DNA from: Candidatus Thiothrix putei | GTDB lineage: Bacteria; Pseudomonadota; Gammaproteobacteria; Thiotrichales; Thiotrichaceae | Reading direction: 5' to 3' | Length of the DNA stretch: 64,000 nucleotides | Assembly (NCBI GenBank): GCA_029972225.1 | Contig: CP124756.1 | Span: 4,192,279 to 4,256,278 of the forward strand | Shown: one piece after another, positions 2,335-22,469 of the stretch | How positions within the stretch are numbered: position 1 is the stretch's first letter | Layout: each line of letters opens with the position of its first letter | Position numbers and translations under genes: made by a program | Notes under the pieces: generated by a model | The model's database searches: none | What the model saw: only the letters and a program-made list of their open reading frames with translations | Told to the model about the DNA's origin: nothing

Positions 2335-4119
2335 ATGATCCGCTTTCCTTACGGTATCAGTAATTTTAAACGTATCCGCGATGAAGATTTTTTGTATCTT
2401 GATCGCACTCAACATATTCCAGTGTTGGAAGAGGCGGGAGAGCAACTGGTTTTCCTGCGTCCGCGTCGCTTTGGTAAATCCCTGCTGCTGTCTACATTGG
2501 CGAATTATTACGATGTTAAGACGGCTGATCAGTTTCAAGCCCTGTTTGGCGGACTGGAAGTCGGGCGTAGCCCAACCCCTGAACACAACCGTTACCTGAT
2601 CCTGCGTTGGGATTTTTCCAAGGTATCGGCGCAAGGCAGCATTGACGACATCAAAAGCAGTTTATTCAAGCACCTTAATGTCGCAATTAAGGGCTTTATC
2701 CGTGATTATACGGATGTGCTGCAAGGTAACGTTGAGGTTGAAACTGACGCACTCGCCTCTTTCCAGTCCCTGTGCAATAGCGTTAGTAGTAGTGGGCAAC
2801 AGCTCTACCTGCTGATCGACGAATACGACAATTTCGCCAATGAAGTGCTGGTACGTGACCCGCATAACAGCCAGCGTTATCAGGACTTGCTGGAAGGCGA
2901 AGGTATTCTCAAATCATTGTTCAAAATCATCAAAGGCAGTGCGGCAGAAGGCAAAATCGGGCGCGTGTTCATTACCGGCGTATCACCGCTGGTGCTGGCG
3001 GACATGACCAGCGGCTATAATGTCGCCACCGATATTTCTTTACTGGCACGCTTTAATGCCTTGTGTGGTATTACCCACGCGGAATTAAGCGAGCTGGTAA
3101 GCGGCGTTTTGCAACATTGCGGGCAAGATGGGAATCAACGTAATGCGTTGTTACAAACCTTAAAACAGTTTTATAACGGCTACCGTTTCTGTGCTCAGAC
3201 GGATAAGCCATTGCTCTATAACCCAATTTTATGTTTTTATTTTCTGCGCCATTATCAGGAGGAATGCACCGCCCCGCGCCAAATGCTCGACGGCAATCTG
3301 ATGATGGATGCAGCGCGTATCCGTTACCTTGCCAGTCAGCCCAGTGGGCAGGGTGTGGTAGAGCGTATTCTCGATGAAGAAAGCACCATCACGCTTGACC
3401 TTCTCGAAACCCGTTTCGGTGTGGAAAAACTAGCTGATTTACAACAGGATGAAAGCTACCTGCTGTCGCTGCTGTATTACTTTGGCATACTCACGATTGT
3501 TGGGACGGATATGCTGGGTAAACTGATATTGGGCATCCCCAACCTCGTGACCCGTGCGTTGTATGTGGATGAATTGCGCCAGCGCATCCTGCCTGCCCCG
3601 AAGGAGCGTCACGCGGTTGCCAATATGGCAGAAAAGTTCTACCAATCCGCCGATCTCCAGCCGCTGGCGGATTATCTGGAGCAAAAATACTTCGCGGCTT
3701 TCAATAACCGTGATTATGCGTGGAGCAATGAACTCACCATCAAAACCGCATTTCTGACCCTGCTGTTCAACGATATTTACTACGTGGTCGATTCCGAAAC
3801 CGCGCTGCAACGCCGCTATGCTGATTTGGTACTGGTGATCCGCCCCAGTATGCGCCAATACCCCACCCTGAAAGACATTGTGCTGGAATTCAAATACCTG
3901 TCACTCAGCGACCTCAAACTCAGCGGTGAGCAAGTACGCGCCCAATCCCGCGAAACCCTGGCGCAACTGCCAGCGGTACAAACCGCACTGCACGACGCGC
4001 TACAGCAATTGCAGCACTATCGCGCCGTGTTGGCAGAAAAATACCGCGAGCCGGAACGTTTACGCTGTCTCGCGGTGGTATCGTTGGGTTTTGATCGCGT
4101 GGTTTGGCAAGCGTTATAA
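2335..4119 (+). CDS. AAA-ATPase-like / PD-(D/E)XK nuclease-like protein, tandem copy 1
   Basis: The 594-residue protein has the layout of the PF09820 (AAA-ATPase-like) plus PF08011 (PD-(D/E)XK) family. The nucleotide-binding loop is RPRRFGKSLLLS (GKS at residues 47-49) and the Walker B-like LLIDEYD has Asp162. The C-terminus carries a PD-(D/E)XK-like core with Asp500 and EFK at 518-520. I chose ATG 2335 rather than the in-frame ATG at 2299 because GGAG lies about 11 bases upstream and the next gene starts with the same MIRFPYGISNF, giving two proteins of equal length. The biological role of this widely expanded family is unknown; mobile-element or defence roles are conjecture. The gene ends 25 bases before its duplicate. 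Confidence 0.9.
   Translation: MIRFPYGISNFKRIRDEDFLYLDRTQHIPVLEEAGEQLVFLRPRRFGKSLLLSTLANYYDVKTADQFQALFGGLEVGRSPTPEHNRYLILRWDFSKVSAQGSIDDIKSSLFKHLNVAIKGFIRDYTDVLQGNVEVETDALASFQSLCNSVSSSGQQLYLLIDEYDNFANEVLVRDPHNSQRYQDLLEGEGILKSLFKIIKGSAAEGKIGRVFITGVSPLVLADMTSGYNVATDISLLARFNALCGITHAELSELVSGVLQHCGQDGNQRNALLQTLKQFYNGYRFCAQTDKPLLYNPILCFYFLRHYQEECTAPRQMLDGNLMMDAARIRYLASQPSGQGVVERILDEESTITLDLLETRFGVEKLADLQQDESYLLSLLYYFGILTIVGTDMLGKLILGIPNLVTRALYVDELRQRILPAPKERHAVANMAEKFYQSADLQPLADYLEQKYFAAFNNRDYAWSNELTIKTAFLTLLFNDIYYVVDSETALQRRYADLVLVIRPSMRQYPTLKDIVLEFKYLSLSDLKLSGEQVRAQSRETLAQLPAVQTALHDALQQLQHYRAVLAEKYREPERLRCLAVVSLGFDRVVWQAL
3351..4103 (+). repeat. Long direct repeat inside tandem AAA/PD-(D/E)XK genes (copy at 5161-5913)
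   Basis: The 753 bases here are identical, line by line, to 5161-5913, with an offset of 1810 bases. The first difference on the 5' side is at the base just before the tract, and on the 3' side T4104 faces C5914. Upstream of the tract the two genes differ at many synonymous and nonsynonymous sites, so the identity is not just recent gene duplication. Confidence 0.9.
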
Positions 4120-4144
4120 ACCATTATTTGACAGGAATAACCGC

Positions 4145-5929
4145 ATGATCCGTTTTCCCTATGGCATCAGTAACTTCAATGCTATTCGTACCGAGGACAA
4201 TCTGTACCTTGATCGCACTCAGCATATCCCTTTGTTAGAAGCAGCGGGCAAGCAATTGGTTTTTCTGCGTCCGCGCCGCTTTGGTAAATCCCTGCTGCTG
4301 TCTACGCTGGCGAATTATTACGATGTTAAGACGGCTGATCAATTTGAAACCCTGTTTAACGGACTGGAAGCCGGGAGTAATCCAACTCCCGAACACAATC
4401 GTTACCTGATCTTGCGTTGGGATTTCTCCAAAGTATCCGCGCAAGGCAACATTGATGACATTAAAAGCAGTTTATTCGAGGTCTTGAATCAAGAGTTTGA
4501 AGGGTTCATTGAAACCTACCGGCATTACCTGACAGTTCCCGTCAACATTCGTGAAGATGCGCTGGCTACCTTCATGGCGGTACTGAATAGCGTACATCTT
4601 AGTGGTCAACAGCTTTACCTGCTGATCGACGAATACGACAATTTCGCCAATGAAGTGCTGGTACGTGACCCGCACAACAGCCAGCGTTATCAGGACTTGC
4701 TGGAAGGTGAGGGTATCCTCAAATCGGTATTCAAAATCATCAAAGGCAGTGCTGCCGAGGGCAAAATCGGTCGGGTATTCATTACCGGCGTGTCGCCCTT
4801 AGTATTGGCGGATATGACCAGCGGTTATAACGTTGCTACTGACATTTCACTGATGCCACGTTTCAATGCCCTGTGTGGTATTACCCAACCGGAACTGAGC
4901 GGGCTGGTGACAGGTATTTTGCAGCACTGTGGGCAGGATGAGCAGCAACGTGATGATCTGCTGCACACCCTGAAACAGTTTTACAATGGCTATCGTTTCT
5001 GCGCCCAATCGGACAAACCGCTGTTGTATAACCCCACGCTGTGCTTCTATTTTCTGCGCCATTATCAGGATGAATGCACCGCGCCGCGCCAAATGCTCGA
5101 CGGAAACCTGATGATGGATGCCTCACGTATCCGCTACCTTGCCAGCCAGCCTAGCGGCACGGGTGTGGTAGAGCGTATTCTCGATGAAGAAAGCACCATC
5201 ACGCTTGACCTTCTCGAAACCCGTTTCGGTGTGGAAAAACTAGCTGATTTACAACAGGATGAAAGCTACCTGCTGTCGCTGCTGTATTACTTTGGCATAC
5301 TCACGATTGTTGGGACGGATATGCTGGGTAAACTGATATTGGGCATCCCCAACCTCGTGACCCGTGCGTTGTATGTGGATGAATTGCGCCAGCGCATCCT
5401 GCCTGCCCCGAAGGAGCGTCACGCGGTTGCCAATATGGCAGAAAAGTTCTACCAATCCGCCGATCTCCAGCCGCTGGCGGATTATCTGGAGCAAAAATAC
5501 TTCGCGGCTTTCAATAACCGTGATTATGCGTGGAGCAATGAACTCACCATCAAAACCGCATTTCTGACCCTGCTGTTCAACGATATTTACTACGTGGTCG
5601 ATTCCGAAACCGCGCTGCAACGCCGCTATGCTGATTTGGTACTGGTGATCCGCCCCAGTATGCGCCAATACCCCACCCTGAAAGACATTGTGCTGGAATT
5701 CAAATACCTGTCACTCAGCGACCTCAAACTCAGCGGTGAGCAAGTACGCGCCCAATCCCGCGAAACCCTGGCGCAACTGCCAGCGGTACAAACCGCACTG
5801 CACGACGCGCTACAGCAATTGCAGCACTATCGCGCCGTGTTGGCAGAAAAATACCGCGAGCCGGAACGTTTACGCTGTCTCGCGGTGGTATCGTTGGGTT
5901 TTGATCGCGTGGTCTGGCAAGCGTTATAG
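4145..5929 (+). CDS. AAA-ATPase-like / PD-(D/E)XK nuclease-like protein, tandem copy 2
   Basis: This is a second 594-residue member of the same family, starting at an ATG preceded by AGGA. The frame is open further upstream, but that part is only the shadow of copy 1. Walker A-like RPRRFGKS, Walker B-like LLIDEYD and the C-terminal nuclease-like core are all present. From 5161 to 5913 the DNA is identical to 3351-4103 of copy 1, whereas residues about 112-150 differ strongly between the two. The ATPase-proximal specificity region has thus diverged while the nuclease half has been homogenised. A third member lies at 16596-18287. Confidence 0.9.
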   Translation: MIRFPYGISNFNAIRTEDNLYLDRTQHIPLLEAAGKQLVFLRPRRFGKSLLLSTLANYYDVKTADQFETLFNGLEAGSNPTPEHNRYLILRWDFSKVSAQGNIDDIKSSLFEVLNQEFEGFIETYRHYLTVPVNIREDALATFMAVLNSVHLSGQQLYLLIDEYDNFANEVLVRDPHNSQRYQDLLEGEGILKSVFKIIKGSAAEGKIGRVFITGVSPLVLADMTSGYNVATDISLMPRFNALCGITQPELSGLVTGILQHCGQDEQQRDDLLHTLKQFYNGYRFCAQSDKPLLYNPTLCFYFLRHYQDECTAPRQMLDGNLMMDASRIRYLASQPSGTGVVERILDEESTITLDLLETRFGVEKLADLQQDESYLLSLLYYFGILTIVGTDMLGKLILGIPNLVTRALYVDELRQRILPAPKERHAVANMAEKFYQSADLQPLADYLEQKYFAAFNNRDYAWSNELTIKTAFLTLLFNDIYYVVDSETALQRRYADLVLVIRPSMRQYPTLKDIVLEFKYLSLSDLKLSGEQVRAQSRETLAQLPAVQTALHDALQQLQHYRAVLAEKYREPERLRCLAVVSLGFDRVVWQAL

Positions 5930-6032: not shown

Positions 6033-6284
6033 ATGAGCATTTCAATTCGTCTGGATAAATCGCTGGAAGAAAGCCTGCGGCAGCGTTTGCAGTCTGAAGG
6101 TATTTCGTTGTCGAATTTTATCCGTGAAGCGGTCAGCGAGAAACTTTCCCGTTACGAAAACCGCCCGACACCCTACGAACTGGGTGAGCATTTTTTTGGG
6201 CGTTATAGCAGTGGGCGTGACGATCTCAGCATTAACCGCAAAGCCCTGTTACGGGAGAAGCTGAATGCAAAACATCGTCGTTGA
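6033..6284 (+). CDS. Ribbon-helix-helix (CopG-like) antitoxin
   Basis: The 83-residue protein opens with a basic beta strand, MSISIRLDKSLEESLRQRL, followed by helix-turn-helix-like GISLSNFIREAVSEKL. This is the ribbon-helix-helix DNA-binding fold of CopG/ParD/VapB-type antitoxins. The C-terminal part (about residues 45-83) would wrap the toxin. It overlaps the downstream PIN toxin by 20 bases, which is typical of translational coupling in toxin-antitoxin operons. Binding to the palindromes just upstream would give autorepression, enhanced by the toxin in complex. Confidence 0.85.
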   Translation: MSISIRLDKSLEESLRQRLQSEGISLSNFIREAVSEKLSRYENRPTPYELGEHFFGRYSSGRDDLSINRKALLREKLNAKHRR

Positions 6285-6678
6285 TAGTGGGGTCTTCATT
6301 GCGTTGTTTGACGGTAGCGATCGTTATCATGCACAGGCAAAGCACTTCATTAAGCATGTTCGGGGGCGATTGCACACCAATTTGCCGGTCATTACGGAAG
6401 TTGTCCACATGCTGGATTTTTCGCAACAAGCCCAACAGGATTTTCTGCTGTGGGTGAATCAATCCGTGCAAATCGACGCAAGCACGGTAAGCGATTGGGA
6501 ACGCATTCTGGCGTTACTGAAGAAATACGCTGATTTGCCCGCCGATTTTGCCGATGCTTCACTGATTGGCTTGTGCGAGCGCATCAACACCCGCACGGTG
6601 GCGAGCGTTGACAGCGATTTTACGGTTTACCGCGACTATGCACGTAACCACTTTACCAATGTGTTCTGGGAAGCTTAA
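6265..6678 (+). CDS. PIN-domain toxin (VapC-like ribonuclease)
   Basis: The 137-residue protein starts with MQNIVVDSGVFIALFD, giving the first PIN acidic residue at Asp7. It carries a conserved acid after TEVVHML (Glu near residue 48) and the late cluster FADASLIGLCERI and VDSDF. PIN toxins of VapBC systems are Mg2+-dependent RNases that cut tRNA or rRNA. It overlaps the antitoxin gene upstream and converges with the DUF971 gene with a 4-base overlap. All catalytic positions appear kept, so the toxin is probably active; its RNA target cannot be predicted. Confidence 0.85.
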   Translation: MQNIVVDSGVFIALFDGSDRYHAQAKHFIKHVRGRLHTNLPVITEVVHMLDFSQQAQQDFLLWVNQSVQIDASTVSDWERILALLKKYADLPADFADASLIGLCERINTRTVASVDSDFTVYRDYARNHFTNVFWEA

Positions 6679-15706: not shown

Positions 15707-16609
15707 ATGAATACAAACAGTCACCCAAGCAGCGTTCTTGAGACGCACATCACCTCCCTGCCGCTGATTGCACGGGGCAAAGTCCGCGATATTTACGCCG
15801 TCGATGACCAGCACATGCTGATCGTTACCACGGATCGTTTATCGGCATTCGATGTGATCATGCCGACCCCGATTCCCCAGAAGGGCGTTATTCTCACGCA
15901 AGTAGCGAATTTCTGGTTTGGCTTGCTGCATGACGTGATCCCGAATCACTTGAGCGACAAAACGCTGGATGATCTGCCGCTGACAGCCGAGGAAAAAGCG
16001 CCACTGCAAGGGCGCAGCATTATCGTGAAACGCCTCAAGCCGTTGCCGGTGGAGGCGATTGTGCGCGGTTACTTGATCGGTTCGGGCTGGAAGGATTACC
16101 AGCAAACCGGCGCGGTGTGCGGTATCGAATTGCCCGCCGGTTTGCAGATGGCAGACCGTTTGCCTGAACCGATTTTCACGCCCTCCAGCAAAGCCGACGT
16201 GGGTGATCACGACATCAATATCAGCTTTGCCGAGATGCAAGCGCGGATTGGCGCAGGCCTCGCCGAGCAAGTGCGCAGCGTGAGTTTGGAGTTGTATCGC
16301 CAAGCGGCGGAATATGCGCTCAAACGCGGCATTATTATCGCTGACACCAAGTTCGAGTTCGGGTTGGATACGGAGGGTAAGCTGGTGTTGATTGACGAAA
16401 TCCTCACACCGGATTCCTCGCGTTTCTGGCCTGCTGATCAGTACAAACCCGGCATTAGTCCGCCATCGTTTGACAAACAATTCGTGCGGGATTATTTAGA
16501 AACGCTGGATTGGGGGAAAGTCGCGCCGGGACCGGAATTGCCTGCGGAGATTATGGAAAAGACAGCGGCTAAGTACCGTGAAGTGGCTGAGTTACTCACC
16601 GCACCTTAA
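15707..16609 (+). CDS. purC: Phosphoribosylaminoimidazole-succinocarboxamide synthase (SAICAR synthetase)
   Basis: The 300-residue protein is of the longer PurC type. It has ARGKVRDIY at about residue 22, TTDRLSAFDVIM, VRGYLIGSGWKDYQQTG and the ATP/metal site VLIDEILTPDSSRFWPAD. It ligates aspartate to CAIR in purine synthesis, the step after PurE, and the two genes are divergent neighbours likely sharing a control region. Its 3' end overlaps the convergent AAA/PD-(D/E)XK gene by 14 bases. Confidence 0.96.
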   Translation: MNTNSHPSSVLETHITSLPLIARGKVRDIYAVDDQHMLIVTTDRLSAFDVIMPTPIPQKGVILTQVANFWFGLLHDVIPNHLSDKTLDDLPLTAEEKAPLQGRSIIVKRLKPLPVEAIVRGYLIGSGWKDYQQTGAVCGIELPAGLQMADRLPEPIFTPSSKADVGDHDINISFAEMQARIGAGLAEQVRSVSLELYRQAAEYALKRGIIIADTKFEFGLDTEGKLVLIDEILTPDSSRFWPADQYKPGISPPSFDKQFVRDYLETLDWGKVAPGPELPAEIMEKTAAKYREVAELLTAP

Positions 16610-18287
16610 CCACTTCCACCCGCACCCCGTCACTCACCAGCAGCCAAGCGCTCAATTTCGGCAAAGCGGCAAGCGTCGGCAACTGCAAATAGCCTTGCAC
16701 TTGCGCAATGCCCGCTTGGCGCTTGGCTGCCCAGCCCGCTGTACCGTCGCTTTGCTTGCTGTATTTCAGCTCGATCAAATGCTGGTGATCCACCGCAATC
16801 GGGTTGCGTTCCAAGAGCATAATATCGGGGTATTTGCGGTTCATTTCCCGCTCGCTTTGGATGAAATACACCGATGATTGGTACAGCAGGGTCAACAGCA
16901 ACACTTTGACGTGCTTTTCATCCATCCCCATCGCGTCGCGGTTGGAAAGGCATTGCAAGGCTTGCTCCATTTCTGTCACCAGCGGCTGCATATCGTCTTC
17001 CAAGGCAAGGGCTTGCACCGCAAACGCCAGTGCTTGGCTGGAAATCGTCATCTGGTTGCGGCGTTCCAATTCCACCTTGAAGTACTGGAAATACAATTCC
17101 TGCATCACGTAGTTGGGGATGCTAAACACTTCACCCGCCAGACTTTTTCTTAGCGGTGAAATAAAGCCCATATAGGCGACTAAGCTGATGAAATCATCAC
17201 GCCCAAAGCCTTTTTCCAGATCAAATTTACGGCGTTGTCGGGCAGTCACTTCCCCATTGCTGATTAACTCATCCAATACGGCGAAATTGGTATCACGATT
17301 GCCGATACTGAACATGCTGAGAATTTTGCCGTAATCGGAGGCGATGTTTTCATCTAGCATCGGGTCAGGGTAAGTGCAATCGGCACTACGGAAGTTTTTC
17401 AGGAAATACAGCACCATATTGGCGTTGTAAACCGTATCCACGGCTTTGGGGGCAAAGCGGTAGCCGTTATACCAACGGGTGATGTCAGCCAACAACACCT
17501 CTGGGTCAAGCTGACACTCTGTAGCCAAGGGTTGCAACAATCCCGCGACTTCGGCTTTGGTAAAGCCCACCGCTTCGTTGAACGCTTCCAGCAGTGACAG
17601 GTTTTCACCAATGTTAAACCCGCTGGTCATACTATCGAGCATGATTGGGGTAACACCCGTGACAAACAAGCGGTCAATCGCACCACGCTGGGTGGCGGTT
17701 TTCAGCGTTTCATAGAAACTGCGCACGAATCCACCTTTGCCCACCACCGCTTGGAATAGATTAAGGTCATCCGCTAACAGCGTATTGGCGAAATGGTCGT
17801 ATTCGTCAATCAGAAACAGGAGTTTTTGCCCCGCCGTCACCCGGAAAAAATACTTCATCTGCGCTTGCGGGGAGGGTTCGCCTTCGATAGCCGCCAGCGT
17901 ACTGTCGGGATAACCATAACGTTTGAGAAACGTTTGCAGGGCTTGCGCGACTTCACGCCCAAAATCTTCGTACAGCCGTGTGAAACCCTGCCCAGTGGCA
18001 ATACCGCTGAATTCCATGAACAGCACTTGGTAGCTGCTTTTCAGCGGGGTCGGGTGTTTGCCGATATGCAAATGGCTGAACAATGCGTCAAAGTCCGCTT
18101 GGTAGGCGCTGTCGTAATAGTATTCCATTGCCGACAACAGCAGGCTTTTGCCGAAACGGCGCGGGCGCAGCAGGATTTGGTACCTGCCTGCCTCTTCCAG
18201 TTGGGCGATGTACGCGGTCTTATCGACATACACATAGCCTTCGCTGATCACTTGCTTGAAATTGCTCAGACCGTAGGGGATTTTCAT
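16596..18287 (-). CDS. AAA-ATPase-like / PD-(D/E)XK nuclease-like protein, third family member
   Basis: The 563-residue protein begins MKIPYGLSNFKQVISEGYVYVDKT. It carries the same family marks as the tandem pair at 2.3-5.9 kb: RPRRFGKSLLLS near residues 42-53, LLFLIDEYDHFAN, FVTGVTPIMLDSMTSGFNI, and a C-terminal nuclease-like core with Asp in KYPDIML and the ELK of LIELKYSK. It is clearly more distant from the tandem pair than they are from each other. The start lies in a 190-base gap before the IS-split gene. The gene overlaps purC tail-to-tail. Function unknown; possibly mobile or defence-linked. Confidence 0.9.
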   Translation of the reverse strand: MKIPYGLSNFKQVISEGYVYVDKTAYIAQLEEAGRYQILLRPRRFGKSLLLSAMEYYYDSAYQADFDALFSHLHIGKHPTPLKSSYQVLFMEFSGIATGQGFTRLYEDFGREVAQALQTFLKRYGYPDSTLAAIEGEPSPQAQMKYFFRVTAGQKLLFLIDEYDHFANTLLADDLNLFQAVVGKGGFVRSFYETLKTATQRGAIDRLFVTGVTPIMLDSMTSGFNIGENLSLLEAFNEAVGFTKAEVAGLLQPLATECQLDPEVLLADITRWYNGYRFAPKAVDTVYNANMVLYFLKNFRSADCTYPDPMLDENIASDYGKILSMFSIGNRDTNFAVLDELISNGEVTARQRRKFDLEKGFGRDDFISLVAYMGFISPLRKSLAGEVFSIPNYVMQELYFQYFKVELERRNQMTISSQALAFAVQALALEDDMQPLVTEMEQALQCLSNRDAMGMDEKHVKVLLLTLLYQSSVYFIQSEREMNRKYPDIMLLERNPIAVDHQHLIELKYSKQSDGTAGWAAKRQAGIAQVQGYLQLPTLAALPKLSAWLLVSDGVRVEVVKVR

Positions 18288-18552: not shown

Positions 18553-19688
18553 TACCAGTCCGTGCCATAAAATAGTTTTTTTGATCAGGGAAATATGGTT
18601 AGATGACTGGTAACAAAAGCAGCCATGAGTAATGTATGACATTAAAAATCACTTTCACTGAGGATGAGATAGCGGAGCTGTTCTACTGGAAGGAGCGCCA
18701 TCCTCATCCCAGAGTCCGTAAGAAAATGTCCGTGCTGTACCTGAAATCCCAACAGTTGACGCATAAGGAAATCAAACGATTGGAAAGGATTACAGAAGCC
18801 ACGCTGCTTGCCTACCTAAACGCCTACCTACAACCTAACGGTTTAGAAGCTCTTAAAGAAATACGATTCAATAAACCACAGAGTGATTTGATGGCATATA
18901 AAGACAAGATTGAAGCCTATTTTCGTGAATATCCCCCCGCAACCAGCAAGGCGGCAGCCGCTAAGATTGAGGAGCTGACAGGCATCAAACGCAGTGAGGA
19001 CAGGGTACGTGTCTTTATGAAGAAAATAGGGATGGACATCCATAAAGTGGGGATGATACCCGCCAAAGCTGATGTGGAAGCACAAGAAAAGTTCCTGGAA
19101 AATGAACTAAAACCGCGCATTCAGGAGGCTAAGGAGGGCAAACGCGCCCTTTTTTTGTCGATGCCGCCCACTTCGTGTTAGCACCGTTTCTGGGGTTTTT
19201 GTGGTCATTTTCCCGCGTATTCATCAAAGCCCCCTGTGGTCGACAACGCTACAACGTATTGGGCGCACTCAATGCGATAACGCTACAACTCATCACGATC
19301 ACTAACGACTCCTATATCAACGCTAACAGCGTGTGTGAATTATTGGAAAAAATTGCAGCGTTAGCACTCAAAATACCGATCACTTTGGTCTTGGATAATG
19401 CCAAGTATCAACGCTGTGAAGCCGTGTTTGCCTGTGCGAAAAGGCTCAATATTGAACTATTATTTTTACCGACCTATTCACCCAACCTCAATCTGATTGA
19501 ACGGTTGTGGAAGTTCGTCAAGAAAAAATGCTTGTACTCGAAATACTATGATAAGTTTCCCGCTTTCAAGGCGGCCATCACCAACTGTCTCGACAAGCTG
19601 GATACCGATCACAAGAAAGAACTGACCCAGTTGATGACAACAAATTTTCAAACCTTTAAAAATGTTCAGGTCTTGACGCTGTAAGGTA
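18553..19688 (+). mobile_element. IS630-family element, type A, copy 1 (1136 bp)
   Basis: The ends TACCAGTCCGTGCC and, reversed, TACCTTACAGCGTC are flanked by TA on both sides, the target duplication of IS630/Tc1 elements. A second copy of the same length lies inverted at 54415-55550; comparing flanks of the two copies sets the borders. It interrupts the glycine-zipper gene. Confidence 0.92.
18636..19684 (+). CDS. IS630-family transposase (type A), two frames joined by likely -1 frameshift
   Basis: The first frame (18636-19181, 181 aa) holds the helix-turn-helix domain and ends in an artificial tail. The DDE catalytic half is read in the -1 frame, giving FFVDAAHFVLAPFLGFLW, then LVLDNAKYQRC (second Asp) and PTYSPNLNLIERLWKFVKKKC (Glu), down to 19684. 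The switch fits the slippery heptamer T TTT TTG at 19151-19157 within a run of seven T. The second IS copy has the same arrangement, so this is probably programmed frameshifting rather than decay. Confidence 0.85.
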
Positions 19689-21247: not shown

Positions 21248-22469
21248 GAGCGACTTGCAAAATCCGACAAACTGAGTTGCTCAATTTTCAGCATTGACCG
21301 AACGCCGCATATTCAGCCGATTTTTTACTCAATTTGACCAACGAAACCTGAGCTTTTTCAGTTTTACCGTAACTTTTGCTAAATTTCACCCATACCGATG
21401 CGACTGCTCCTGTTTTTCAGTCAGTCTTCCCGTGTTTTTTCAAACCCAGTCGCTTTATAACAAGACACGCATCAGTTGATCAGCACTCAACACCAAAATC
21501 CCAAACATCAAGTGGCTGTAAACTTTTTGCGCACCTTGCACCCACACATTCCGACCACCAAATTCATCCTTCAGGCGGGCATTGGTTCGTTCTACGGTGC
21601 TGCGAATTTTGTAACGCTCGGCATCAGCAGGTTCAAACGCTTCTTTCTGTCCGCCGCGAGGATTGTGATCAATCAGAGGGACATGCCCCAGATGACGGCT
21701 GTATTCGTGCAAATCAGCACTGCAATAGGCTGCATCCATCAGGTCGTAGAGACTGGTGACACGTTGGGCACTGATTTGAGAGAGTGGGATGGCTGCCCCG
21801 CTGTCGTGAAACGAGGCGGAAGACAGAATGGCTGCTATCGGGACACCACAATCGGCGGTATCGATATGCAGTTTGTAGCCGTTCCAACTGTGCTTGTAGC
21901 CTTGGGCATTCTTCTTCGTCCCCCGGTTACACTGAACCGGTATCTCATCGAGTGCTTGCTGAAGTGACTGTTCCCGTTGGCGCTGAATCCGTGTTTGCCC
22001 TTGTTTTTTCTTTGGCTTTTCCTCGGCAACAGGCCGTTCACGTGCCTCAATGGCTGTTGAATCCCGACACAGGTGGCCGATCAGCGCATCGCCCAAATAC
22101 GTTTTCACCAACGTTTCATGCACACGTTCCGCTAAACGCTGTTCAGCAAATTCAGCGAAGGCACGTGAAAAGGTGGATTCGGAAGGCAGTTTCTTGGTCA
22201 GGGGAAACCCGCAGATGCGTCGCAGGGAGCGATCGTTTTGCAGCCGGTCAATGAGTGCTCGCGTATTGACAATATTGAGCACGCTTTTGGCGACAAAAGC
22301 ATTGGCAAACCAAGATCGCTCCGTCGCTGGCCGTCCAGACCCATCACGAAAAGAGCGCACAAAATCTTCAATGCGCGTCAGCTCCAGTACGTGAATGAGT
22401 TTTTCAAGCTTGGGGGTCAATGTGCCAAAGGCATCATTGAAGCAAGGTAGTATTTCAATTTGCAGCAAA
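21248..22469 (-). mobile_element. DDE insertion sequence (type C), copy 1, truncated at its 5' end
   Basis: The right end GAGCGACTTGC is shared with the complete copy at 45532-46884. The other end stops abruptly at 22469, where an ISKra4-type element begins. The missing part includes the promoter and the first 14 codons of the transposase. Confidence 0.85.
21455..22468 (-). pseudogene. IS5/IS1182-like DDE transposase, lacking first 14 codons
   Basis: Apart from the missing N-terminus, the 337 residues match the 351-residue product at 45622-46677. The DDE residues are visible in CRDSTAIEA (Asp), YDLMDAAYCSADLH (Asp) and STVERTNARLKDEFGG (Glu), so the catalytic core is whole. It opens only at a TTG and has no native promoter, so expression is doubtful. 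The family (IS5/IS1182/IS4 superfamily, PF01609-like) is judged from motif style only. Confidence 0.85.

What the first reader, a model, noticed from the sequence alone, without database searches (positions are those of the whole stretch)
2335..5929. Tandem AAA/PD-(D/E)XK genes with a 753-bp homogenised tract
The nuclease-bearing 3' parts of the two genes (3351-4103 and 5161-5913) are base-identical, while the 5' parts, especially residues about 112-150, have diverged. This pattern suggests gene conversion that keeps one functional domain uniform and lets a possible recognition segment vary. A third relative sits at 16.6 kb. The family (PF09820/PF08011) has no established function.
Basis: partly seen in the sequence, partly recalled or inferred. 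Interest (0 to 1): 0.55.

Follow-up and report, generated by a model that had tools for sequence, protein, structure and literature searches.

The report
Nuclease genes with swappable recognition blocks
This filamentous sulfur bacterium carries a large family of paired sensor-and-DNA-cutter genes whose cutter end is copied between neighbouring genes while two short internal blocks are exchanged like interchangeable parts, a pattern expected of an immune receptor family, although no function has been shown.

Summary
The genome (genus Thiothrix) holds 23 such genes; 14 of 15 congeners hold 5-24. A second species has the same tandem pair. There too 5' parts group by orthology (142 sites to 2) and 3' parts by genome (27 to 0), so gene conversion in each lineage after speciation is supported and assembly collapse is unlikely.

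Long identical tracts do not always cover the nuclease, and one pair is a recent duplication whose 5' block was replaced. The stronger signal: two blocks, HV1 (between Walker A and B) and HV2 (the lid), exist as old discrete alleles. They switch at 9 of 17 syntenic loci (4 of 12 single-copy ones), partly independently of each other; neighbouring proteins almost never do this.

The predicted fold is a STAND-like NTPase plus PD-(D/E)XK nuclease. Best reading: an immune-type receptor nuclease with two swappable recognition cassettes. Function is inferred. Paralogue recombination in this family is already published for Cardinium.

The parts
2335..4119 (+). copy c1, 594 aa, AAA-ATPase_like (PF09820) + PDDEXK_9 (PF08011)
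4145..5929 (+). copy c2, 594 aa, same architecture
3351..4103 (+). 753-base tract in c1, identical to 5161-5913 in c2
5161..5913 (+). the same tract in c2
2650..2784 (+). HV1 block of c1 (residues 106-150): helix-loop-helix between Walker A and Walker B
4460..4594 (+). HV1 block of c2
3052..3264 (+). HV2 block of c1 (residues 240-310): helices after the NTPase domain, lid (HD1-like) by my reading
4862..5074 (+). HV2 block of c2
2458..2481 (+). Walker A-like RPRRFGKS of c1 (residues 42-49)
   Evidence: sequence; motif reading in PMC1913061
2809..2829 (+). Walker B LLIDEYD of c1 (residues 159-165)
3727..4083 (+). PD-(D/E)XK nuclease domain of c1; it holds D497 and K520 (invariant in 59 sequences) and E518 (at least 90%)
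6033..6678 (+). ribbon-helix-helix gene (6033-6285) and PIN-domain gene (6265-6678), VapBC-like by my reading, directly downstream of c2
16596..18287 (-). third relative, 563 aa, subfamily B

Best explanation
Shown: the two genes belong to a multigene family (DUF1703: AAA-ATPase_like + PDDEXK_9) that evolves by recombination in blocks. The 3' tract of the window pair was homogenised after the species split, and separately in a second species. Two blocks inside the ATPase module, HV1 between Walker A and Walker B and HV2 in the lid region, exist as old discrete alleles; at the same chromosomal loci different species carry different alleles, and HV1 and HV2 can change one without the other. Inferred from the predicted fold: the protein is a compact STAND-type NTPase switch followed directly by a PD-(D/E)XK nuclease, with no repeat-type C-terminal sensor seen. 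Inferred mechanism, not shown: HV1 and HV2 form the surface that recognises a foreign (phage or mobile-element) ligand; binding releases the ATPase switch, which activates the nuclease to cut DNA. Recombination copies the effector part between copies and trades recognition blocks, so a genome keeps 5-24 receptors of different specificity. The recombination part I hold at about 0.95; the confidence below is for the immune-receptor mechanism as a whole.
For: Tandem pair in two species: 142 orthology-grouping against 2 genome-grouping sites in bases 1-1016; 0 against 27 from base 1029 on. AU test rejects c1+c2 of the window genome as a clade in the 5' part (p 3e-7) and rejects c1+c1 (p 0.003) and c2+c2 (p 2e-5) in bases 1000-1782. 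Of 74 cross-genome pairs in syntenic groups with core identity >=85%, HV1 is under 60% in 36 and at least 90% in 31. Pairs with different HV1 (38): HV1 pS 0.73, pN 0.35; core pS 0.30, pN 0.03. Pairs with the same HV1 (32): HV1 pN 0.011. Control: 39 of 69 family pairs (9 of 17 loci) contain a 45-residue window under 60%; of syntenic neighbour proteins 3 of 95 pairs (2 of 17 loci), 0 of 33 with >=400 aligned residues. With one-to-one pairs only, 20 of 44 (9 of 17 loci); in loci single-copy in each genome, 5 of 20 pairs (4 of 12 loci). Separate change: at the window locus G000c2 and G005c2 share HV1 (0.96) but not HV2 (0.54), while G001 and G005c2 share HV2 (1.00) but not HV1 (0.49). In one clade of nine genes all four HV1/HV2 combinations occur (see full report for the limits). 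Fold: model pLDDT 86; nearest chains 2qen Z 17.4 and 2fna Z 16.8, then plant NLR RPP1 15.8 and CED-4 14.5; nuclease part with CinB 7et0 Z 11.5. D497 and K520 invariant, E518 in at least 90% of 59 sequences. Setting: two CRISPR arrays, two Cas1 and a CARF protein lie around one pair; JetD follows another gene; an MmeI-type enzyme is beside a third pair; in T. fructosivorans a cytosine methylase, an AAA_5 protein and a DUF2357/PDDEXK_7 protein occupy the window's interval.
Against: No function has been tested for any member in what I saw. No PADLOC or NCBIfam model matches the four proteins tried. The defence setting is suggestive only: several loci have housekeeping neighbours, and 14 evenly spaced control stretches of the same genome also hit defence models, among them a type III restriction enzyme and a NERD-UvrD protein. 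A shared fold shows no function. In plasmid alleles of Moraxella osloensis I saw no block switch, so generality outside Thiothrix is not shown. Over 59 family sequences, mostly distant, HV1 is variable but not the most variable stretch. 8 of 17 loci show no switch, and 66 of 137 genes fell in no syntenic group.
Confidence: 0.5

Rival explanations
1. Selfish or homing-like nuclease family: the nuclease cuts relatives that lack its own block and is copied into the break, so conversion serves the gene itself.
For: Nearest solved folds are archaeal ATPases (2qen, 2fna) whose clade I recall as having been proposed to be mobile (Leipe and others 2004, recalled, not read). Homology between the 2.02-Mb and 4.02-Mb copies covers little more than the gene itself. 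Window-locus occupancy varies, 0, 1 or 2 copies. Two Thiothrix plasmid records hold relatives. 66 of 137 genes are in no syntenic group.
Against: Homing would spread one version, whereas different old blocks persist side by side and change separately. 23 syntenic groups show chromosomal places kept across species. No insertion signature was noticed at the one empty site compared, in G010.
Confidence: 0.15
2. Kin or self recognition in a filamentous multicellular bacterium: HV1/HV2 alleles mark strains, and mismatch with a partner or self factor triggers nuclease-driven death, as in fungal heterokaryon incompatibility.
For: Discrete old alleles shared between species are the pattern described for incompatibility and immune genes (search listing). 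NTPase conflict systems are reported as preponderant in multicellular prokaryotes (PMC7159879, passages).
Against: No specific partner gene was found to recur beside the family; the recurrent neighbour clusters look generic. Fits the allele data about as well as defence, but I know of no route of exchange between cells.
Confidence: 0.15
3. Neutral recombination: ordinary homologous recombination between repeats and between species, without selection on the blocks; HV1/HV2 merely tolerate change.
For: The stretches on either side of HV1, around Walker A and Walker B, are highly conserved and so offer homology for exchange. Paralogue recombination in this family is published for Cardinium (PMC6387759).
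Against: Same-allele pairs are under strong purifying selection in HV1 (pN 0.011 against pS 0.162), so the block is not a free loop. Neighbour proteins at the same loci almost never show such switches.
Confidence: 0.15
4. Assembly artefact: two copies collapsed or mis-polished over the identical tract.
For: The tract is perfectly identical over 753 bases, as are several others in this genome; no reads could be inspected.
Against: An independent genome has the same two-copy order and spacing with its own, different identical tract. Polishing is unlikely to remove divergence of the size seen upstream (14-17%). The copies have different flanks in a single-contig assembly.
Confidence: 0.03

Closest known systems
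DUF1703 family expansion in Cardinium cCpun (Siozios et al. 2019, PMC6387759, passages seen)
   Same: Same two-domain proteins (PF09820 + PF08011); 25 paralogues; intragenic recombination detected among paralogues.
   Different: That paper reports no apparent homogenisation and, in the passages seen, no block-wise alleles; it suggests secreted nucleases in a symbiont. Here the host is Thiothrix, some tracts are base-identical, and two blocks are exchanged at loci shared between species.
STAND NTPases: archaeal ATPases 2qen and 2fna, plant NLRs, CED-4
   Same: Predicted fold of residues 1 to about 410.
   Different: No repeat-type C-terminal sensor seen; the effector nuclease is C-terminal; the diversity lies inside the nucleotide-binding module.
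HsdS specificity subunits of type I restriction systems (PMC3077401, abstract seen)
   Same: Two variable blocks in one gene, exchanged by recombination, at a fixed locus.
   Different: No sequence similarity was tested and there is no evidence that the blocks read DNA. Works-like comparison only.
DGR-diversified STAND conflict systems of multicellular bacteria (PMC10907252, passages seen)
   Same: STAND-type proteins with targeted diversity in multicellular bacteria.
   Different: Those vary a C-type lectin domain by error-prone reverse transcription (adenine specificity recalled). Here differences are spread over all codon positions and 51% involve an A (43% in the core).
PD-(D/E)XK family DUF1703 (Knizewski et al. 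2007, PMC1913061, passages seen)
   Same: Domain assignment, Walker A RPRRFGKS, Walker B DEYD, nuclease motifs.
   Different: That paper predicts activity only and does not discuss recombination in the passages seen.

Membership tests
DUF1703 (AAA-ATPase_like PF09820 + PDDEXK_9 PF08011) | both Pfam domains above curated cut-off | tested here: met
   PF09820 164.5 and 160.9 bits (cut-off 26.1); PF08011 27.9 bits in both (cut-off 25.5)
DUF1703 (AAA-ATPase_like PF09820 + PDDEXK_9 PF08011) | Walker A RPRRFGKS, Walker B DEYD, nuclease D...ExK | tested here: met
   R42-K48, D162-D165, D497 and K520 invariant in 59 sequences; S49 and E518 in at least 90%; all present in both window copies
STAND NTPase | NTPase domain with following helical lid and winged-helix region | tested here: met
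   2qen Z 17.4 (315 aligned, rmsd 4.1), 2fna Z 16.8, RPP1 Z 15.8, CED-4 Z 14.5, on model residues 1 to about 410; predicted model, fold only; the winged helix was not inspected separately
STAND NTPase | separate sensor such as TPR, WD40 or LRR (common, not strictly defining; recalled) | tested here: inconclusive
   Pfam shows no repeat domain and the C-terminal part is the nuclease; a sensor without a Pfam model is not excluded
PADLOC-listed antiphage system | match to a PADLOC model | tested here: not met
   no match at E <= 0.1 for the 4 proteins tested
HsdS / type I restriction | HsdM and HsdR partner genes | tested here: inconclusive
   one search shows no recurrent partner among neighbour ORFs within 2.5 kb; HsdM and HsdR models were not searched by name
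DGR target | adenine-specific substitution in the variable region (recalled) | tested here: not met
   1349 of 2658 HV1 differences involve an A; all three codon positions change
Antiphage receptor | protection against phage dependent on ATPase and nuclease residues | not testable with these tools
   needs a phage challenge

The most novel reading that the evidence does not exclude
A minimal STAND receptor-nuclease in which specificity is written in two independently exchangeable cassettes inside the nucleotide-binding core itself (one between Walker A and Walker B, one in the lid), kept as old alleles shared across species by balancing selection, while the effector half is kept uniform by gene conversion: a combinatorial recognition code without a separate sensor domain.
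Probability: 0.35. Interest if true: 0.8.

Novelty: new variant of a known kind. Interest (0 to 1): 0.6.

Why it matters
PF09820/PF08011 genes are widespread and, in one published count (PMC6387759, passage), 9.8% of the species carrying them have 10 or more copies, yet I found no established function. The block structure says which residues to look at: HV1 and HV2 are where alternatives are kept, so they are the natural candidates for recognition. If correct, it would be an immune receptor design with its recognition surface inside the switch domain, and it gives a direct chimera test. It also gives a clear natural case of two opposite recombination outcomes, uniform effector and shuffled recognition blocks, within one gene.

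Tried and rejected

DGR as the source of variation: rejected on the make-up of differences. Three reverse-transcriptase matches above cut-off exist in the genome; one lies in the CRISPR locus at 1.09 Mb. I did not classify them.

Donors of HV1 at other loci: of 2302 non-orthologous pairs (467 A, 909 B, 926 C) 24 had HV1 over 85% and in only one did HV1 exceed the downstream identity by 0.10 or more, so exchange seems mainly between alleles of one locus. The donors themselves were not found.

Partner gene: no recurrent specific neighbour noticed among 732 ORFs.

Viral carriage: 1 of 70 candidate stretches in viral contigs encodes a distant relative, 31% identity. 28 phage records match at under 60%; the 15 listed are unannotated faecal 'Bacteriophage sp.' records, not followed.

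Generality in Moraxella osloensis plasmids: of nine records found I compared three osloensis copies, two of them identical, and one M. bovis copy; no block switch within osloensis. Negative or uninformative.

Defence enrichment: 130 neighbour ORFs matched 132 PADLOC models at E <= 1e-15 (25 shown), 142 control ORFs matched 23, but Cas1 and JetD alone hit many models and proteins per set could not be counted, so I claim no statistical enrichment. ORFs were called by my own longest-ORF rule, which at the reverse-transcriptase gene took the wrong strand (L158:833-1714).

All four HV1/HV2 combinations at one strict locus: I first read so; one search showed that G007 and G013 do not share the flanks, and that one G015 copy is a second copy 6.2 kb from the syntenic one. 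The claim is now made for a clade of genes only.

Direction of conversion between c1 and c2: not settled.

Rows dropped: 2 of 116 PF09820 matches (a 28-position fragment and one below cut-off) were not taken up; 17 of 137 genes shorter than 505 aa were left out of the alignments; one search counts only pairs with at least 20 differences; pairs with core identity under 85% were left out and pairs under 80% overall out. At tandem loci searches also pair first copies with second copies of another genome; one search repeats the count without that. For the structure alignment 57 of the 80 loci were used. HV1/HV2 borders were set, so searches are not blind; searches use no preset border.
Full report
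What is there. The two window genes lie between a glutaredoxin-like gene and a VapBC-like pair, a DUF971-type gene, hslU and hslV (the names grx, VapBC, DUF971 and hslUV are my reading of the translations and Pfam hits). They align without gaps at offset 1810, with exactly 753 identical bases at 3351-4103 and 5161-5913. Both carry PF09820 and PF08011 above the Pfam cut-offs. The genome has 23 PF09820 and 23 PF08011 matches. Of 40 genomes searched, own included, 20 have the family: the own, 14 of 15 others of the genus with 5 to 24 matches each, 5 of 9 of other genera of the family, and 0 of 15 from other families. One congeneric genome, G007, has a contig of 1,938,437 bases, the length of a Thiothrix fructosivorans record, and another, G009, a contig of 151,453 bases, the length of a Thiothrix subterranea plasmid. 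I therefore place the window in genus Thiothrix; the species is not identified.

Conversion in the window pair. Genome G005 holds the same tandem pair in the same interval and at the same spacing. At sites where the four copies split two and two, bases 1-1016 group by orthology at 142 sites and by genome at 2; from base 1029 on they group by genome at 27 sites and by orthology at none (counts summed by me from its table). The 5' tree joins c1 with c1 at 100/99 and the AU test rejects c1+c2 of the window genome as a clade (p 3e-7). In the tree of bases 1029-1769 the window copies are identical and the G005 copies join at 99/95. For bases 1000-1782, used because the test needs rows that differ, the test rejects c1+c1 (p 0.003) and c2+c2 (p 2e-5); the within-genome groups are in that tree but not starred. 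Copies that are identical within each genome but differ between genomes mean that homogenisation went on after the species split in each lineage. The interval is adjacent in 9 of 16 genus genomes by coordinates: two copies in G000 and G005, one in G001, none in G007, G009, G010, G012 and G014 (tblastn). For G015 I have only a gap of 0.45 kb by coordinates. In G007 the place is taken by a cytosine methylase, an AAA_5 protein and a DUF2357/PDDEXK_7 protein.

How general the tracts are. In seven genomes I took 137 genes and aligned 120 of full length in three subfamilies (32 A, 44 B, 44 C). Of 336 within-genome pairs 12 have a run significant after correction, 10 of them in the window genome; of 2052 between-genome pairs 6 do. 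Seven of the 12 cover the nuclease part and four cover HV1; one is a 36-base run only. At 4.02 Mb two copies sit in a 3.4-kb unit that is 97-100% identical outside an island over the first third of the gene, which is a recent duplication followed by replacement of a 5' block. The 2.02-Mb copy matches those copies over little more than the gene. Thus identical tracts have at least two origins here, and 'conversion keeps the nuclease uniform' is too simple.

Two swapped blocks. Syntenic groups were made from flanking DNA (23 groups of two or more, 66 of 137 genes in none). Comparing genes of one group between species, identity is mostly 90% or more along the gene but falls to about 50% in HV1, and in HV2 for part of the pairs. 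Of 74 pairs with core identity of at least 85%, HV1 identity is below 0.6 in 36, between 0.6 and 0.9 in 7 and at least 0.9 in 31. Pairs with different HV1 have pS 0.73 there against 0.30 in the core, so these are old alleles brought in as blocks. Pairs with the same HV1 have pN 0.011, so each allele is conserved. At a cut of 0.8, HV1 and HV2 are both alike in 27 pairs, both different in 16, and only one is different in 31. Pairs are not independent, so by locus: 9 of 17 loci show a 45-residue window under 60% (39 of 69 pairs), with the weakest window starting at residues 85-110 in 31, 235-245 in 7 and 370 in one; neighbour proteins show it in 3 of 95 pairs at 2 of 17 loci, and in 0 of 33 long ones. 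Some of the neighbour ORFs may not be real genes. With one-to-one pairs only the family count is 20 of 44 pairs at 9 of 17 loci, and in loci with one copy per genome 5 of 20 pairs at 4 of 12 loci.

Separate exchange of the two blocks. At the window locus, G000c2 and G005c2 share HV1 (0.96) but not HV2 (0.54), and G001 and G005c2 share HV2 (1.00) but not HV1 (0.49); at the 0.95-Mb locus G000 and G015 share HV2 (0.99) but not HV1 (0.42). In the clade of the 2.67-Mb gene (nine genes, core support 100/100), HV1 type a goes with HV2 type a in G000, G005 and G007; b with b in G001, G009, one G015 and one G013 copy; a with b in the other G015 copy; b with a in the other G013 copy. AU tests reject the two G015 copies as a clade for HV1 (p 3e-6) and the two G013 copies for HV2 (p 3e-6), while their cores are not rejected as clades. 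Limits: the trees carry long-branch warnings for outgroup rows; shared flanks hold for G000, G001, G005, G009 and one G015 copy, which show only aa and bb; the a-b gene is a second G015 copy 6.2 kb away; G007 shares no flank and G013 only about 100 bases next to the gene. So the four combinations are shown for a gene clade, not for one chromosomal place.

What the protein is. The model made from 59 sequences has mean pLDDT 86. HV1 is a helix, loop and helix just before the Walker B strand; HV2 covers helices after the NTPase domain that I read as the lid. The nearest solved chains are two archaeal ATPases, then NLR and CED-4 type STAND proteins, and for the C-terminal part the CinB nuclease. 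Foldseek alone gives weak matches, best E 5e-5, to Cdc6/ORC, Apaf-1 and plant NLR chains. D497 and K520 are invariant and E518 is in at least 90% of the 59 sequences. I could not place HV1 and HV2 in space, as coordinates are not given.

Setting. Beside family genes of the window genome I found: two CRISPR arrays of 24 and at least 11 repeats, two Cas1 and a CARF protein around the 1.10-Mb pair; JetD directly after, and an SbcC-like gene some way before, the 2.02-Mb gene; a NERD-UvrD protein by the 0.23-Mb gene; a Schlafen AlbA_2 protein by the 1.75-Mb pair; an MmeI-type enzyme by the 2.27-Mb pair. Other loci have ordinary neighbours such as a LeuA-type synthase, a type II/IV secretion ATPase and an AcrB-type pump, and control stretches are not free of defence models.

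What is known. Searches for PF09820, PF08011, DUF1703 and the Pfam names found few papers on the family (most hits for PF08011 are malaria papers by their titles). None of the listings and passages I saw reports a tested function. Siozios et al. describe 25 paralogues in Cardinium with intragenic recombination and 'no apparent homogenization' (passages). Knizewski et al. define the domains (passages). A review lists PF09820 as a domain found in RADAR, PARIS and Old-tin proteins (one passage). My searches for block exchange in STAND proteins or shared alleles of defence genes brought none that I recognised from the listings, which is not proof of absence. The two-block exchange resembles HsdS domain movement (abstract), a likeness in manner only.

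Verdict. The receptor function is my inference, at about one half. On checking, the four-combination claim was narrowed and E518 was corrected; the odds did not need to change, because separate exchange also shows at syntenic loci.

Noticed in passing
L167:1813-7089 (T. fructosivorans, same interval as the window pair): Cytosine methylase, AAA_5 protein and DUF2357/PDDEXK_7 protein (McrBC-like by my reading) occupy the interval held by the pair in the window genome.
   Followed up: partly
L158:1-13501 (own genome 1093500-1107000): A subfamily-C tandem pair sits between two CRISPR arrays (24 and at least 11 repeats), with two Cas1 genes, a reverse-transcriptase gene, a Uma2 gene and a CARF/SAVED-type protein.
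   Followed up: partly
L166:9-8029 (own genome, 2.02 Mb): A subfamily-A gene lies directly before a JetD (Wadjet) gene, with a PIN gene and an SbcC-like gene upstream: possibly inserted into a Wadjet operon.
   Followed up: no
L160:8127-15066 (own genome, 4.02 Mb): A 3.4-kb tandem duplication of a family gene plus a Big_9/cadherin-domain gene, with an island of divergence in the 5' part of the family gene.
   Followed up: partly
L163 (own genome 442000-457500): Three tandem subfamily-B copies spaced exactly 1750 bases, flanked by near-identical 1-kb repeats in direct and inverted order.
   Followed up: no
L268 (T. fructosivorans plasmid pTfr153): A plasmid copy 87% identical in protein to window c1, just beside several transposase genes: a possible vehicle between species.
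   Followed up: partly
window 18636-19684 and 21455-22468: Two overlapping ORFs that look like a split transposase, and a second transposase-like ORF (reading of translations only).
   Followed up: no
G005 C1 1517295-1520125 and other genus genomes: Truncated or split family genes are common (17 of 137 under 505 aa), suggesting frequent loss.
   Followed up: no
L171:735-3332 (G014): 2.6 kb of unidentified sequence in the same interval, with no match to the window copies.
   Followed up: no
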